Below, piece by piece: positions 12,040 to 57,450 of a DNA stretch of 57,450 nucleotides (positions are counted from its first letter, which is position 1; every line of letters starts with the position of its first letter). Position numbers and translations under genes: made by a program. The notes under the pieces were generated by a model. The model was not told where the DNA came from. It was given only the letters and a program-made list of their open reading frames with translations, and searched no databases. Source of the DNA: Peribolospora baueri (lineage: Eukaryota > Basidiomycota > Peribolosporomycetes > Peribolosporales > Peribolosporaceae). The DNA is taken from contig JAMDHS010000115.1 in NCBI GenBank assembly GCA_029717555.1, positions 1 to 57,450 on the forward strand, read 5' to 3'.

Positions 12040-14333
12040 ATGCAGCCCGTTTTCCAGGCGACCTTCGTCGCCGTCATCGTCTCCCTTCTCTTCCTCCCTT
12101 CCATCTCGTCCACCCACCTGGCGTCTGCGTCGGACATCGAGGAGCGTACCGCATTCCCGATTCATGCCCATCACTTCATCAAAGAGCACTCCGTCCCACC
12201 CGCCCTCGGCACCCGCTCTCATAACAGGCGTCGCCGCTTTGGCCGCGCTCGCGGCTTGAATGACTTTCAGCCGCGCATGGCTGGGCACGGAGGAAACCGA
12301 GGAGGGAACAACGATAACGGCAATAACAACGACAATGGCAATGGCAATGGCAATGGCAATGGCAATGGCAATGGCAATGGCAATGGCAATGGCAATGGCA
12401 ATGGCAATGGCAATGGCAATGGCGATGGCAATGGCAACAACAACGGCAACAACAACGACCAGGGCAACAACGGCCAAACGAATATAGGTGAGCGGATCTC
12501 AAGGGCATGACGCACAAAGCTTTCAATCAGGCTTCATTCACCCTGTCATCGCCACGTTTCCCTTTCCACCGTGACGGACGCGATGCTTCTCAAGGCACTG
12601 CGTCAAGCTCGTCCGCTTGCTCCGCAGCGACGACGAGTACAACGTCGTCGAGCAACAACAATGGAAAGAAGAACGGCAACAGCGGGCAAAAATCGGGCGG
12701 CCTGCAGTCAAGTCTAAGTGAATGTCGATCGGGCGCGGAAGGGAGTTGAGCGTCGGAGACCCGCACTGACAGTAGTGTTTTGCATGCTCAACTTGCCGAC
12801 AGCGCTGGATCCGTCAATCATCGGGTCGAATCTTGCCCAGGACGGCACGATGCAGGCCAACGCCGAACCGAACCAGACGCCTTCGCTGACGTCCAAAAAC
12901 AAGTGGGTTGGCGCGCCTCCTGTGGACAGAACGGGAGAGCGAGCGTTCGTTGATCATGCGGATCGCTCCGCTCTCGTCTTTGCGGTCTCCCCTACAGCTT
13001 CATAAACTTCTGCGCGGGGCATACTATCACCAACGGTCAGCAAGTCGTCGGCGGGAGCTGTAATCCGGGTGAGGGACGTTCATGTAGAGACGAAGGCTCA
13101 CAGTCGCGACCAGGCACTGTATGTGACTCATGAGCTCTCCTTTCCCCTGTCATACAGTTCCGATGGGCCAGATTATCGGGCAGAGCAAGATGGTGTCGAG
13201 CAAGTTCATCAACCCGAAGAACCTCGACACCATCGCCGCTAACACCAACTTTACCGTGCAGATGAAAATCAACAACATGAACACGGGCGCCTTTGTCAAC
13301 GCGCAGTCCAACTACTGTGAGCTAGCTCGCGCGCTCGCTCGCTCGCTTCGCCGACCGTCTTACGTTGCCGTCCGTCGCCAGAGTTGATCGTCGAATGACT
13401 ACTGACGGTGCTCTGTGACCTTGTCTTTCACTGCGCCCGGTTTTCTCAGTCTCTGCACCTCAGCAAGTCGACTCGAGCGGCATCGTCACAGGCCACTCCC
13501 ACGTCGTCATCGAGGCCATCAATTCCCTGACCTCCACTACGGTGACCAACCCGACAAAGTTTGCCTTTTTCAAAGGCTTCAACGACGCTGCCCAAAATGG
13601 CATTCTCTCCGCCACTGTTCCCGGCGGCCTTCCCGCCGGCACGTATAAGATGTCGTCCATCAACACGGCGGCGAACCATCAACCCGTGCTCGTCGCCGTC
13701 GCCCAGCACGGCAGCCTCGACGATGCCGTCTACTTCACCGTGAAGGGCGGCGGGAAGAATAACGGGGGCGGGAGCGGCGGCGCTACCGGCGGCGGCAATA
13801 ATAATGGCAGAGGCGGATCGACCACCGGCAGTGCCGGTGGCGGCAAGTCGAAGGGCGGCATGAGCGGCACTGGCACCAGCACCGGCACTTCATCATCATC
13901 GTCGTCGTCGTCGAAGGGCCAAGGAAGCGGTAAAGGCAACGGTAACACGGACGGGTCGTCCTCCCCGTCTGCATCGGCCACCAGCTCCGTATCTGGATCT
14001 GGGTCGTCGAACGGCCGGGGAAGCGGTAAAGGCAACGGTAACAGCGACGGGTCGTACTCCCCGTCTGCATCGGCCGCCAGCTCTGCATCTGGGTCTGGGT
14101 CTGGCTCGGGATCGAGATCGGGGTCGAAAGCTGGGGCGAAAGGTGAAGCTTCGGCAGCTTCGCCCTCCGCCAGCGCCGCCAACTCCAACTCCAACTCCAA
14201 CTCCAACTCCAACTCCTATTCCGGCAATGCGGCGAACGGCGGCGAGCCGCAACAAGGCTCTCCGTCCATTGGCTCTGGGACTGGGAGGGGCCGGGTCAGG
14301 GCCAGAGCTGGTTTGGGGGGAGGGTGTGAATGA
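12040..14333 (+). CDS. Secreted Asn-Gly-repeat protein of the basidiomycete family often labelled 'ribosomal protein s17'
   Basis: Six exons (12040-12487, 12595-12717, 12803-12902, 12998-13068, 13158-13316, 13450-14333) join in phase to 594 residues. It starts with a signal peptide (MQPVFQATFVAVIVSLLFLP...), then a basic pro-region (NRRRRFGRARG), then an (NG)n tract encoded by 14 exact GGCAAT copies. The conserved core runs from DPSIIGSNLAQDGTM through NNFINFCAGHTITNGQQVV, GSCNPVPMGQIIGQSKM, SSKFINPKNLDTIAANTNFT, NYFSAPQQVDSSGIVTGHSH, FAFFKGFNDAAQNG, AGTYKMSSINTAANHQPVLV and AQHGSLDDAVYFTV. From memory, this block belongs to a fungal secreted family whose 'ribosomal protein s17' label is a database error: nothing here is ribosomal. 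The tail is Ser/Gly-rich with two copies of a GSGKGNGN...DGS repeat and an (NS)n tract. There is no clear hydrophobic C-terminal anchor, so it is probably secreted or wall-associated. Molecular function is unknown. Confidence 0.82.
12337..12420 (+). repeat. (GGCAAT)14 hexanucleotide microsatellite coding for Asn-Gly
   Basis: Fourteen uninterrupted GGCAAT units, flanked by related units (GACAAT before; GGCGAT, GGCAAT and GGCAAC after). It lies in exon 1 of the secreted protein, in frame as Gly-Asn. Exact copies with no synonymous change point to recent slippage, so copy number is expected to vary between strains. Confidence 0.95.
13916..14105 (+). repeat. Imperfect ~99-bp coding tandem duplication
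   Basis: Two adjacent, clearly related segments. Each encodes GSGKGNGN followed by (T/S)DGS, then SPSASA and a Ser/Gly run. They differ at several positions, so the duplication is older than the GGCAAT expansion upstream. Confidence 0.75.
14181..14216 (+). repeat. (AACTCC)6 hexanucleotide repeat coding for Asn-Ser
   Basis: Six exact AACTCC units in the last exon of the secreted protein, encoding (NS)6. This is a second independent microsatellite within the same gene. Confidence 0.95.
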
Positions 14334-53351: not shown

Positions 53352-55670
53352 ATGCCGGACGACGAGCTCCAACGGCTTCGGTCGCGTGTACGAGAGCTTG
53401 AAGCGGAACTTGCTCGCCTCCAATTCACCGACTGCCCCGCGGCTCCTCCCGCTCAAGCTCCGGGGACGTCGGCGTCGACGGTCTCATCAGCGCCCACAAA
53501 CGAACACCTTGTCCGTCCGCTCTCGCTTCCCGAGTATAAGCGCTATGGCAGACAGATGGTTCTCGACCGATTTGGACTTCCCGGTCAACTCAAGCTTAAG
53601 CGTGCCTCGGTGCTCGTCGTAGGCGCTGGAGGTCTGGGATGCCCGGCTGTGCAGTACCTCGCTGCTGCTGGTGTCGGTGAGTGATGCCATTTCGCGCCCA
53701 GCTTTCTTGCTTTTCTTTCCCCTAGAGTGTCAACTGACTACGATTGGAGGTGATGCCCGACTGACGCGGATTCTGGCGTTTCTGTTTCGATATACGTTCT
53801 TCCGAACGCCCCTTGTCGCTGGCTCTCTTAGGGCACATCGGCATCGTAGACCACGACACCGTAGAGACCTCCAACCTCGCTCGACAGATCCTCCACAATG
53901 ACGCACGCACCGGTTGGCTCAAGGCAGCGTCGGCCAAGGCTGCCGCGCAAAGGTGGGTAATCTTTGCCCCCTCTTTCCGCCGTCTCTCGTCTGGGACGCC
54001 TTCATGGGCAGGGTAAAGAAGAAGGAAGCTCATGGCAGAGTCTACTCTTGGTCGCGCCGATCCCCCCAACCCCCAGCATCAACCCGCACATTCGCATCAC
54101 CTCCCACCCCGTTCCCCTTCTCGCCACAAATGCTCTTACTCTCTTCGCGCCGTACGACCTGATCCTCGACTGCACGGACAACCCGGCGACGCGGTACCTC
54201 GTCTCCGACGCCGCCGTGCTGCTCGGGAAGACACTTGTTTCCGGCTCGGCGCTCAGGTGCGATGGACAGGTCGTCGTCTTGAACAAGAAGCTGAATAGGG
54301 GAGCTGGGAGAGCGGCGCGAGAGGCTAGGAGGAAAGCTGGAAGTTTGAAAGCGGGCAAATACACAGTCAGTGCGCCGAGGACAGAGACCGTGGCGGATGG
54401 GGACGGCGAAGACGAGACGATATCGGCTGCAGAGGAGTCGAATGAGGAAGAGCGCGGTCCCTGCTACCGCTGCCTGTTCAAGTCCCCTCCGGACCAGGTG
54501 GTGGACTGCGAGGACGGAGGCGTGTTGGGAACGGTCACTGGCGTGATCGGCACTTTGCAGGCGCTAGAGGCCATCAAGATCATCACTGGACTTGATGACG
54601 GTGAGTTGGCGGGCGAGTGCCAAGGCAAAGGCAGTCTTCGCTCCTCTATGAGTGGACCATGGGGTGATGAGCACTGGGGCCCAACGGGGTGATCGTCTAT
54701 CCTGTGGTCCTGATTTGTTTTCCATCTCGCGCCCTTCCCCCCCGCTCCCTAGGCACTCCGCCAATCCTCCTAGTCTTCTCGGCCCTCTCACCTACCACCC
54801 CATTCCGCTCCTTTCCCCTCCGACCCCGCCGCCACACAGCCTGCCGAGCGTGTGGCGACGCGCGCCTCGTGCCGGACAAGATCTGGGACGTGGCCGACGA
54901 GGACTACGTAACGTTTTGCGGCACCGCGAGAGGAGCCGCGCAAGAGCTGGGTATGGAGCATAGGGTTGGTGTTAGGGAATTGGCGAGCGTTCTAAAAGGG
55001 TCGACGTGGGCTGTCGGCGGCAGCGGAAGTCTGGCGGACGGTCAACGAGACGACGAGCCCGTTCAGGGCGGTGCAGGAAGAAGAAGACCGGCGGTGGTAG
55101 TGGACGTCCGCCCGCCTGTGGAATTCGGCATCGCACACCTTCCGGGCTCCGTCAGTGAGTGGAGCGCTATAGAAGCCAGCATATTGTTCGACTACGCCCC
55201 CCCCCCTCCCTTTTCGTTTGATCGGCTGTCGGTTTCAAAATCGAGCTGACCGCGCGTCCTGACCTCTTTCGAACCCCATTCGTTCAATTTGCGCAGACAT
55301 ACCTCTGGTTGCCTTGCTACGCGAGCCTTTACAGCCCCGTCTCTTCGCCACTCCTTCTATCAGCTCGTCCGCTCCAGAGTCCCATCCTAATGAACTGACG
55401 GGCCCCGCCCACTTCCACAGTCATACACTCACCGCCCCCGCATCACCGGAGATCTACTTCATCTGCAAGCGCGGCAACGACTCACAGCGGGCTGTACGAG
55501 CTGTGCGACAAGCTCTCGTCCGGCGCGGAGAGTCCGCGAGGTCCGATGGCGGGGAAGGAGAAGGGAGCATGGGAAGCGCGAGGGAAGGTGGAGCGGCGGG
55601 GCTGAAGGACGTGATTGGAGGGCTGAGGGCTTGGAGTAGAGAGGTGGACGCCGAGTTCCCCGTGTATTGA
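53352..55670 (+). CDS. UBA4: Uba4/MOCS3: adenylyltransferase and sulfurtransferase of the Urm1/tRNA-thiolation pathway
   Basis: Five exons (53352-53676, 53832-53952, 54077-54600, 54753-55154, 55297-55670) join in phase to 581 residues. An N-terminal coiled coil ([20 protein letters not shown]) is followed by the E1-like ThiF/MoeB domain: [86 protein letters not shown] (zinc-site Cys pair), [20 protein letters not shown] and [11 protein letters not shown] (second Cys pair). The C-terminal rhodanese domain has [20 protein letters not shown] and [20 protein letters not shown] with the persulfide Cys in CKRGNDS. The enzyme activates Urm1 by C-terminal adenylation and thiocarboxylation, for thiolation of wobble-U tRNAs and urmylation; animal MOCS3 also serves molybdopterin synthase. 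The 54753 acceptor was chosen over 54840 because it keeps [20 protein letters not shown], the expected linker. Confidence 0.93.
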
Positions 55671-56370
55671 TTGACGCGGAAGTGGGGGCTCGCTCGGGCT
55701 TGGTCGTGTAGCAAACAGTCTAGACTCATAAGTGCTGGCGAGAGGATGGGGATCGATCCGATCGACTGACTGTCGACAAAAAAGTCCATTCACCCAGCCC
55801 ACCGCGACCGCGGTGTGGACTCAATTTTTTTTCTTGGTCTTCATATGCTCGCTCCCCCGCACTGCACTGTCCATCGGATTTCGTGCGGCGGAGTGTTCGG
55901 TGTGCGTGTCGTGTGCGTGCGCTCTTCGAGCTTTGAATGCAATCCACCACGTCCACATCCACATCGGCCTTCGGTCGAAAACTCTTTTAAAAAAAACTCC
56001 CCGCTCTCGTACATACCATATCGAACCCCGCCTGCCCTTCGTCGTGATGGATCGGTCGTTCGTCTGTCTAGTCTGCTCACTCCTCCCTCCAACGTGAGTA
56101 GCGCCTCTTTCTTTTTTTTCACGACAGAAGCACGACGGACGAGCAGCGTTAACTTCGAGTGCAGGCCGTGTATTGGGATCATTAACCACGCAGCTCCGGT
56201 GGTCTATATACGTTAAGGGGCAAACGTACGTACAACGAACGGGGCGGGGGACTCTGGGCGACGGAAGAAACAAGCCACACTGTGCTATGGTTGGTCTGGT
56301 CTGGTCGCGGCGCAGTCGGACGGCGGCGGACGAAAGAGGACGGAAGCAGGCAAGACGAAGACGAGGGCGA
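55671..56370. other. Intergenic, converging 3' ends
   Basis: 700 bases between the UBA4 stop (+) and the stop of the repeat protein (-). No gene supported; poly-T and poly-A runs near 55827, 55987 and 56111 suit 3' UTRs. Confidence 0.5.
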
Positions 56371-57450
56371 TTAGTAGAGGTCGTCGTAGTCGCTATCGTC
56401 GAACAGGCTGCGGAGGTACTCGATCTCGAGCGCGCGACGCTGGCCCTGCTGCTGCTGCGGCTGCTGCTGCTGCTGGAGCTGGCTCATGCCAGTGGCGGCG
56501 TGGGCGCCGGTGGTGGGACCAACGTTGGTGTTGACGTTGGTGGGGTTCTCGTGCGATCCGAACATGTCCATACCGGGGACCAGACGCTCTTCGAGGTCAC
56601 GGCGGCCGGTAGCGGTGGAGGCGCCGGTTTTGGGACCAACGTTGGTGGTGACGTGCGTGCTGCCGCTGCCGCTGCCACCGCTACCGCCAAAACCACCCAT
56701 ACCCATCATGGCCAGATCCCCCACCTCGGGAACAGCAGCGAGGGGAGCCAGGCGCCTTTCGAGGCCGCGACGACCGGTAGAGGCAGAGGCACCGGTGGTG
56801 GGACCAACGTTGGTGTCGACATAGGTGGGAGCTTGCTGCGAGCCGAAGATGTCCATACCGGGGAGCTGACGCTCGTCGAGGTCGCGGCGGGCGGTAGCGG
56901 CGGAGGCGCCGGTTTTGGGACCAACATTGGTGTTGACGCGCGTGCCGCCGGCTGGAGCACCGGAACCGCCCATTGGCATGAACATGCTTGCCATGCTTGC
57001 CATTCCGAGCATGTCACCGATCCCACGCTCTTCGAGGTCGCGCTGCTGCGGCGGCTGCTGGCCTTGGGGCTGCTGCTGCTGCTGCTGCTGGAGCTGGCTC
57101 ATGCCAGTGGCGGCGTGGGCGCCGGTGGCGGGACCAACGTTGGTGTTGACGTTGGTGGGGTTCTGGTGCGATCCGAACATGTCCATACCGGGGACCAGAC
57201 GCTCTTCGAGGTCGCGCTGATGCGGCGGCTGCTGGCCTTGGGGCGGCGGCTGCTGGCCTTGGGGCGGCGGCGGGGGCTTGCTGAAGGCGCCTACCAAGGG
57301 GAAAGCCATGGAGCCAAGCATGGCAACGTTGGTGATCTTATTGAGCTTGCCACCACCACCGCCTTGCGCGGGAGGGCTGGCGGTGGTACCGCTGCCGGAT
57401 TTACCGAACCCGAACCGGGGGAACTCGAACGCTCGCTCTTCGAGGTCGCG
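56371..57450 (-). CDS. Repeat-built Gln/Gly-rich protein, N-terminus beyond the window; possible processed repeat precursor
   Basis: One open frame from the right edge to a TAA at 56371-56373, about 359 residues, incomplete at the 5' end. It is built of units opening with RDLEER (variants RDLDER, RGLERR) and closing with VNTNVGPxTGAxAATG followed by RR, or by a polyGln linker (MSQLQQQQQ). Six RDLEER-type openers and five NTNVGP closers are visible. Cores between them include LVPGMDMFGSHQNPTN (twice, almost identical), QLPGMDIFGSQQAPTY, GIGDMLGMASMASMFMPMGG and LAPLAAVPEVGDLAMMGMGG. RR pairs precede four openers and would be kexin (Kex2) sites if the protein is secreted. A hydrophobic stretch (VAMLGSMAFPLVGAF) lies near the visible start. 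The last residues are acidic (LRSLFDDSDYDDLY). The repeat-with-dibasic plan recalls fungal Kex2-processed repeat proteins, but the signal peptide, if any, is outside the window. No family recognised. Confidence 0.75.
   Translation of the reverse strand, partial: RDLEERAFEFPRFGFGKSGSGTTASPPAQGGGGGKLNKITNVAMLGSMAFPLVGAFSKPPPPPQGQQPPPQGQQPPHQRDLEERLVPGMDMFGSHQNPTNVNTNVGPATGAHAATGMSQLQQQQQQQPQGQQPPQQRDLEERGIGDMLGMASMASMFMPMGGSGAPAGGTRVNTNVGPKTGASAATARRDLDERQLPGMDIFGSQQAPTYVDTNVGPTTGASASTGRRGLERRLAPLAAVPEVGDLAMMGMGGFGGSGGSGSGSTHVTTNVGPKTGASTATGRRDLEERLVPGMDMFGSHENPTNVNTNVGPTTGAHAATGMSQLQQQQQPQQQQGQRRALEIEYLRSLFDDSDYDDLY
56473..57216 (-). repeat. Near-identical 129-bp segments within the repeat protein
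   Basis: 56473-56601 and 57088-57216 differ at only about 3 of 129 bases, while the three intervening units are much more diverged. This suggests a recent duplication or gene conversion between non-adjacent units. Confidence 0.88.

What the first reader, a model, noticed from the sequence alone, without database searches (positions are those of the whole stretch)
56371..57450. Repeat protein with RDLEER / NTNVGPxTGA units and RR sites: candidate processed peptide precursor
At least five units share a fixed opener and closer while the core between them changes completely in places (MDMFGS-type, Met/Gly-rich, Ala/Pro-rich). Dibasic RR pairs sit at most unit boundaries. A constant frame around variable cores is how multi-peptide precursors are built in fungi (pheromone precursors, Kex2-processed repeat proteins, RiPP precursors). 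The frame is cut by the window edge, so more units and a signal peptide may lie beyond. I know of no described family with this closer.
Basis: partly seen in the sequence, partly recalled or inferred. Interest (0 to 1): 0.72.

Follow-up and report, generated by a model that had tools for sequence, protein, structure and literature searches.

The report
Fungal secreted repeat-peptide precursor, contig-split
The window's edge holds the back half of a fungal gene for a protein that looks secreted and is built of repeated units with protease-cut sequences between them, most likely a precursor that the cell's Kex2 protease chops into several peptides; proteins of this kind are known in fungi, and this one has a sequence that matched nothing else in the collections at hand.

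Summary
On the minus strand, 57450-56371, an open frame of 359 codons carries six RDLEER-type openers, a decayed seventh, and five TNVGPxTGA closers around changing cores. It is cut because the window is a whole contig (C17) that ends there. Contig C89 begins with the same 127 bases and holds the front of the gene: ATG, a signal-peptide-like start, a two-Cys segment, a hydrophobic peptide and two further units. Copy number is unresolved: 335 bases are identical in both contigs.

Best reading: a Kex2-processed repeat protein (KEP). Three repeats of 39, 51 and 55 aa lie between RR sites, as the published mining rule asks. The opener adds LEER, which fits Kex2's wider LxxR preference. The genome gave one Kex2 match. 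Units alternate between hydrophobic and PGMD-type cores. No DUF3328 gene was found (no positive control), so a cyclised RiPP is unsupported; the tail is not CAAX. Opener and closer codons are nearly identical, so recent duplication explains much of the 'constant frame'. Peptide release and function are inferred. New member of a known kind.

The parts
56371..57450 (-). 3' part of the coding sequence (359 codons plus stop), open at the contig edge
   Evidence: continuation on contig C89
57324..57450 (.). 127 bases identical to the first 127 bases of contig C89: assembly break inside the repeat
57116..57450 (.). 335 bases identical to C89:192-526; leaves the copy number of a 399-base (133-codon) two-unit block unresolved
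57217..57450 (-). hydrophobic-type unit AFEFPRF (opener RDLEER, no TNVGP closer; ITNVAMLGSMAFPLVGA; P/Q-rich tail)
57043..57216 (-). PGMD-type unit LVPGMDMFGS (opener RDLEER, closer TNVGPATGA, Q-rich tail)
56887..57042 (-). hydrophobic-type unit GIGDMLGMASMASMFMPM (opener RDLEER, closer TNVGPKTGA); RR at its border with the next unit
56770..56886 (-). PGMD-type unit QLPGMDIFGS (opener RDLDER, closer TNVGPTTGA); RR at its border with the next unit
56602..56769 (-). hydrophobic-type unit LAPLAAVPEVGDLAMMGMGG (opener RGLERR, closer TNVGPKTGA); RR at its border with the next unit
56437..56601 (-). PGMD-type unit LVPGMDMFGS, second window copy (opener RDLEER, closer TNVGPTTGA, Q-rich tail); RR at its border with the tail
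56371..56436 (-). acidic C-terminal tail RALEIEYLRSLFDDSDYDDLY and stop; no CAAX, no hydrophobic GPI-type end

Best explanation
It is the 3' part of a gene for a secreted Kex2-processed repeat protein (KEP), at least 608 codons long by arithmetic on the two contig pieces. SHOWN by sequence: signal-peptide-like N-terminus; two TCVxVxTGAxAQT motifs; a hydrophobic Gly-rich peptide between KRR and YRR; then at least eight units, each opened by R-D-L-E-E-R or a variant and six of them closed by TNVGPxTGA, strictly alternating between a hydrophobic Ala/Met/Gly-rich core and a PGMD[MI]FGS core; a Kex2 gene in the genome. INFERRED: Kex2 in the secretory pathway cuts after RR and after LEER (LxxR), giving peptides of about 34-78 aa of these two kinds plus 5-residue spacers such as DLEER. 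MORE SPECULATIVE: the peptides act at the cell surface as surface-active or self-assembling wall peptides, as the Rep1 repellents of Ustilago do, rather than as a mating pheromone or cyclic RiPP. My rough odds: secreted precursor cut at RR 0.75; cut also at LEER 0.55; surface-active role 0.35.
For: Front of the gene on C89 minus strand from ATG at 874; hydrophobic N-terminus with 8-residue Kyte-Doolittle means up to 2.62. Three fragments of 39, 51 and 55 aa between RR sites, each with TNVGPxTGA: by count they meet the rule of PMC7329392 (at least 3 tandem repeats of at least 8 aa between KR/KK/RK/RR, none over 100 aa; passage). LxxR as a Kex2 preference: PMC8528282 (part 1 of 3 of the text) lists Glu among the five best alternative P2 residues and Leu as preferred P4; PMC6258133 (passages) reports Kex2-dependent cuts after -LITR and -VSER in Ece1. 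PMC9769878 (outline with abstract, and passages) reports products of basidiomycete KEPs expressed in Pichia that end after single Arg. In the window piece 18 of 21 Arg lie in openers or directly before them and 0 of 6 Lys do (assigned by hand; Fisher; units not independent). Kex2: one P-domain match in the genome; its catalytic part matches solved kexin best, E 2e-72.
Against: No peptide, transcript or protein data. Only 4 of 7 window openers make an RR; the other borders depend on LxxR. The decayed opener RALEIE has lost LxxR. LDER has Asp at P3, which PMC8528282 calls unfavourable. Opener and closer codons are nearly identical, so conservation may be recent duplication without selection for cutting. 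L..R is not significant in the C89 piece (1055 of 20000 shuffles), and there one Lys does sit at a border (SKRR). The signal peptide was judged by hydropathy, not SignalP. The hydrophobic 37-residue peptide might be a membrane segment; the TMHMM filter of the KEP survey PMC6339444 was not run.
Confidence: 0.65

Rival explanations
1. A secreted, intact, low-complexity cell-wall or adhesive protein whose repeats simply expanded by tandem duplication; RR and LEER are hitch-hikers and are not cut in a useful way.
For: Units share codons as well as residues; 335-base identity between copies; Q-, P- and G-rich linkers; AlphaFold on the single sequence shows no folded domain (mean pLDDT 40.4), which does not separate the two readings.
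Against: Arg is almost confined to openers and their borders while Lys sits in the cores of the window piece; of three variant openers two keep LxxR (LDER, LERR) and the third (RALEIE) keeps RR in front; the hydrophobic N-terminal peptide is itself bracketed by KRR and YRR.
Confidence: 0.25
2. A precursor of a cyclised RiPP (ustiloxin/dikaritin type).
For: Repeated units between Kex2 sites and a secretion signal are shared with that class.
Against: No DUF3328 match in the genome (but no control genome rang either); none among 18 neighbouring frames scanned at E up to 0.001, of 45 frames of at least 180 aa listed; no conserved Tyr in the units; fragments of 34-78 aa rather than the 8-14 aa given in PMC7329392.
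Confidence: 0.03
3. A mating pheromone precursor.
For: Repeated peptide precursors occur among pheromones; KEPs with alpha-type pheromone features are reported in basidiomycetes (PMC6339444, passages).
Against: The frame ends DDLY without CAAX and the window piece has no Cys, so not the a-type; no repeated XA/XP run follows the cut sites (by eye: one fragment begins LA, the others do not begin with XA or XP). Mating-type genes were not searched.
Confidence: 0.04
4. Not a gene on this strand: the plus-strand open frame of 451 codons (56098-57450) is the real one.
For: The plus-strand frame is open.
Against: The minus frame has ATG, signal-like start, stop and unit structure and continues in frame across two contigs. 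The plus frame was not tested against any library.
Confidence: 0.02

Closest known systems
KEX2-processed repeat proteins (KEPs; PMC6339444, PMC7329392)
   Same: Signal-peptide-like start, tandem units with dibasic sites between at least three of them, Kex2 in the genome, long units (the survey reports longer KEP peptides in basidiomycete yeasts)
   Different: Three of seven window openers lack a dibasic pair and would rely on LEER; two kinds of core alternate; KEP lists themselves could not be searched
Ustilago maydis Rep1 (repellent)
   Same: Kex2-separated imperfect repeats of comparable size (34-55 aa there per PMC4617103; 34-78 aa here), partly hydrophobic peptides
   Different: Sequence not compared; amyloid or repellent activity unknown here; Q- and P-rich linkers here
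Ustilago maydis Hum3, and a Hum3-like gene found here on C27/C99
   Same: Repeats with Arg borders; a GNPLSGL[FL]GG segment shared with the Hum3-like gene of this genome (35 of 5000 shuffles reach the score; chosen after seeing it)
   Different: No hydrophobin domain in the window gene; the window piece as a whole does not align better than shuffles with those repeats (67 of 200 reach the score; C89 piece 1 of 200)
Candida albicans Ece1
   Same: One precursor cut by Kex2 into several peptides, with cuts at non-dibasic [LIV]xxR sites reported (PMC6258133)
   Different: No sequence comparison made; function unknown here

Membership tests
KEX2-processed repeat protein (KEP) | ER signal peptide | tested here: met
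   C89 frame starts with a short basic n-region, hydrophobic core and small residues before PVP; hydropathy only, no SignalP
KEX2-processed repeat protein (KEP) | At least 3 tandem repeats of 8-100 aa between KR/KK/RK/RR | tested here: met
   Fragments of 39, 51 and 55 aa, each with TNVGPxTGA, between RR sites (rule from PMC7329392). Met by count; the authors' repeat-scoring software was not run
KEX2-processed repeat protein (KEP) | Dibasic site at every unit border (stricter than the published rule) | tested here: not met
   4 of 7 window openers make an RR with the residue before
KEX2-processed repeat protein (KEP) | Kex2 present in the organism | tested here: met
   one P-domain match, kexin-like catalytic part
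KEX2-processed repeat protein (KEP) | Release of peptides by Kex2 | not testable with these tools
   needs peptidomics or in vitro cleavage
Ustiloxin/dikaritin RiPP precursor | DUF3328 (UstYa) gene nearby | tested here: inconclusive
   0 matches in the genome but no control genome rang; none in 18 of 45 listed frames
Ustiloxin/dikaritin RiPP precursor | Conserved Tyr in the repeated core | tested here: not met
   in the window piece Tyr occurs in one unit (APTYVD) and in the C-terminal tail only
Basidiomycete a-type pheromone precursor | C-terminal CAAX | tested here: not met
   frame ends DDLY; no Cys in the window piece
Rep1/Hum3 repellent-type protein | Peptides assemble at the surface (amyloid-like, Rep1) | not testable with these tools
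   no assay
Hum3 | Hydrophobin domain after the repeats | tested here: not met
   no Pfam family over its cut-off in either piece

The most novel reading that the evidence does not exclude
A two-part cassette precursor: an invariant LEER opener and TNVGPxTGA closer form a fixed processing and assembly frame into which a hydrophobic core and a PGMD core are set in strict alternation (closer residue K in the hydrophobic units, A or T in the PGMD units), so that one gene releases pairs of unlike peptides meant to assemble together; the number of pairs varies by 133-codon steps between strains, and the N-terminal TCVxVxTGAxAQT pair is a cysteine-bearing form of the closer that caps or cross-links the assembly.
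Probability: 0.15. Interest if true: 0.6.

Novelty: new member of a known kind. Interest (0 to 1): 0.35.

Why it matters
If right, it adds a further sequence family to the fungal KEPs and shows one way in which dibasic-only mining can undercount units: part of the borders here would be cut at LEER rather than at RR. It also shows that an assembly can break such genes at their repeats and so hide them; a second repeat gene in the same genome is broken with the same 127-base overlap.

Tried and rejected
Paralogues: own-genome search with the window piece gave 3 places, all this gene (C17 and C89); with the N-terminal piece 1 self match and 3 weak ones at E 0.12-0.46, whose frames I read and judged chance. 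A DNA pattern for T[CNSY]VxxxTGA gave 10 places, 8 of them in this gene, against 8 for the backwards control. No match in plasmid records (megablast), no relative confirmed in prokaryote genomes or viral contigs, best PDB match E 0.27. By their descriptions these collections are not fungal (PDB apart), so they do not show that the family is absent from fungi. Pfam: three weak families for each piece at E up to 10, all under their cut-offs, the best DUF2076 at E 0.006 for the C89 piece. Six motif strings were found in 0 papers of the held library. The organism was not identified: PAL-family matches are present, and two exon pieces match PAL entries of the PDB (that 1t6j is from a Rhodotorula relative is recalled). 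AlphaFold on the window piece alone gave no usable fold, so no fold search was made. LxxR in the Hum3-like gene: 609 of 20000 shuffles reach the L..R count and 506 the [LIV]..R count, only a hint. No tRNA and no Rfam match in the window.

Full report
What is there. The window is a complete contig (C17, 57,450 bases) of a 22.1 Mb genome in 178 contigs. On its minus strand a frame runs in from the right-hand edge and stops at 56371. It has 359 codons, no Cys, 21 Arg and 6 Lys. Openers RDLEER (four), RDLDER, RGLERR and a decayed RALEIE begin the units and the tail; five closers TNVGPxTGA end five of the six units. The nearest recognised gene on the left has ThiF and rhodanese domains and lies on the plus strand, so the two genes meet tail to tail.

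Why the gene is cut. Contig C89 (278,940 bases) begins with exactly the last 127 bases of the window. The same 127 bases occur again at C89:400, and 335 bases are identical between window 57116-57450 and C89:192-526. I infer an assembly graph that broke at a repeat with a word length of 127. The two C89 copies are 399 bases apart, 133 codons, in frame; how often this block is repeated in the real gene cannot be told from the contigs.

The front of the gene. On C89 the minus strand opens with ATG at 874 and reads MKVAVVSAALLASSAIGAPVPYNTRR, a signal-peptide-like start. Then come two motifs, TCVHVQTGAQAQT and TCVYVKTGAVAQT, that resemble the closer; 297 of 20000 shuffles of this region reach the better score and 3 of 20000 reach both. 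A hydrophobic 37-residue peptide lies between KRR and YRR. C89 then has three openers: two whole units and the start of a third, which is the window's first unit. Counting the shared unit once, the two pieces give at least eight units and, by arithmetic, at least 608 codons. I did not write out the joined protein.

Order of the units. In the window the cores run AFEFPRF, LVPGMDMF, GIGDMLG, QLPGMDIF, LAPLAAV, LVPGMDMF; C89 adds AFEFPRF, LVPGMDMF in front. So a hydrophobic core and a PGMD core alternate without exception over the eight units. Closers in the PGMD units read TNVGP[AT]TGA (4 of 4) and in the two hydrophobic units that have one TNVGPKTGA (2 of 2). Duplication of a two-unit block is enough to explain this order; a functional pairing is possible.

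Is it more than chance. The repeats are beyond doubt. Whether they are under selection as cut sites is less clear. All six L..R of the window piece are in openers, and 14 of 20000 shuffles reach six; in the C89 piece 1055 of 20000 reach three. Eighteen of 21 Arg but none of 6 Lys are in openers or directly before them (assigned by hand; Fisher p 0.0003); in C89 one Lys does lie at a border (SKRR). These numbers treat duplicated units as independent, which they are not: opener and closer codons are almost the same in all units. Two of three variant openers keep LxxR (RDLDER, RGLERR), the third (RALEIE) does not.

How it most likely works. Published KEP mining asks for a signal peptide and at least three repeats of 8 to 100 aa between KR, KK, RK or RR (PMC7329392, passages). 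The window piece alone has three, of 39, 51 and 55 aa. Kex2 also prefers Leu at P4 and accepts Glu at P2, though Asp at P3 is unfavourable (PMC8528282, part 1 of 3); cuts after -LITR and -VSER are reported for Ece1 (PMC6258133, passages). Products of mushroom KEPs expressed in Pichia were seen to end after single Arg (PMC9769878, outline with abstract and passages). LEER thus fits as a second kind of cut site. With both kinds of site the window piece yields main fragments of 78, 58, 47, 34, 51 and 50 aa, a 20-aa tail and short spacers. The genome gave one proprotein-convertase P-domain match, next to a kexin-like catalytic domain, and 14 exon-level matches to S10 carboxypeptidases, one of which could belong to a Kex1; that was not resolved.

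What the peptides do is open. Basidiomycete yeasts are reported to make longer KEP peptides than other Dikarya (PMC6339444, passages); whether this fungus is one was not tested. The nearest model with a known job is Rep1 of Ustilago maydis, whose Kex2 peptides of 35-53 aa form surface-active amyloid-like fibrils (PMC4617103, passages). The hydrophobic cores, and the segment GNPLSGLFGG that recurs as GNPLSGLLGG in a Hum3-like repeat-plus-hydrophobin gene of the same genome (35 of 5000 shuffles, tested after seeing it), point the same way. Against that, the window piece as a whole aligns with those repeats no better than with shuffles (67 of 200 reach the score; for the C89 piece 1 of 200).

What it is not. 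No DUF3328 gene was found, though the search had no positive control; none of 18 neighbouring frames scanned, out of 45 listed of at least 180 aa, matched DUF3328 or tyrosinase at E up to 0.001. There is no CAAX end. No Pfam family exceeds its cut-off in either piece. The pattern T[CNSY]VxxxTGA occurs 8 times in this gene and twice elsewhere in the genome, against 8 for the control, and protein searches of the genome found only this gene, so no paralogue was detected.

Limits. The public sequence collections within reach are of prokaryotes, viruses, phages and plasmids, so the silence outside this genome says little. The held paper library has none of six motif strings; it covers open-licence papers only, and the supplementary KEP lists could not be read.

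Noticed in passing
G000 C27:47657-48510 (L048 from 1658) and C99:1-1022 (L031): A second repeat gene broken by the assembly with an exact 127-base overlap: a hydrophobic stretch near the front (start codon not resolved, probably an upstream exon), repeats with LRRQ and GRQL borders, then a hydrophobin domain (PF01185). Layout like Ustilago Hum3.
   Followed up: partly
window 53961-55246: ThiF and rhodanese domains on the plus strand: a UBA4/MOCS3-like gene (name recalled), convergent with the repeat gene.
   Followed up: partly
L019 2382-3710 (C89): Part of a long-type catalase gene beyond the start of the repeat gene.
   Followed up: partly
window 56098-57450 plus strand: A 451-codon open frame antisense to the repeat gene, probably a by-product of repeats and codon use.
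   Followed up: no
window 12333-12437 and 13907-14101: A (CAATGG) array of 17.5 copies and, inside a 304-codon plus-strand frame, a two-copy 96-base repeat.
   Followed up: no
G000 C99, C112, C156, C126: Seven exon-level hydrophobin matches over the Pfam cut-off, so the fungus has hydrophobins besides the Hum3-like one.
   Followed up: partly
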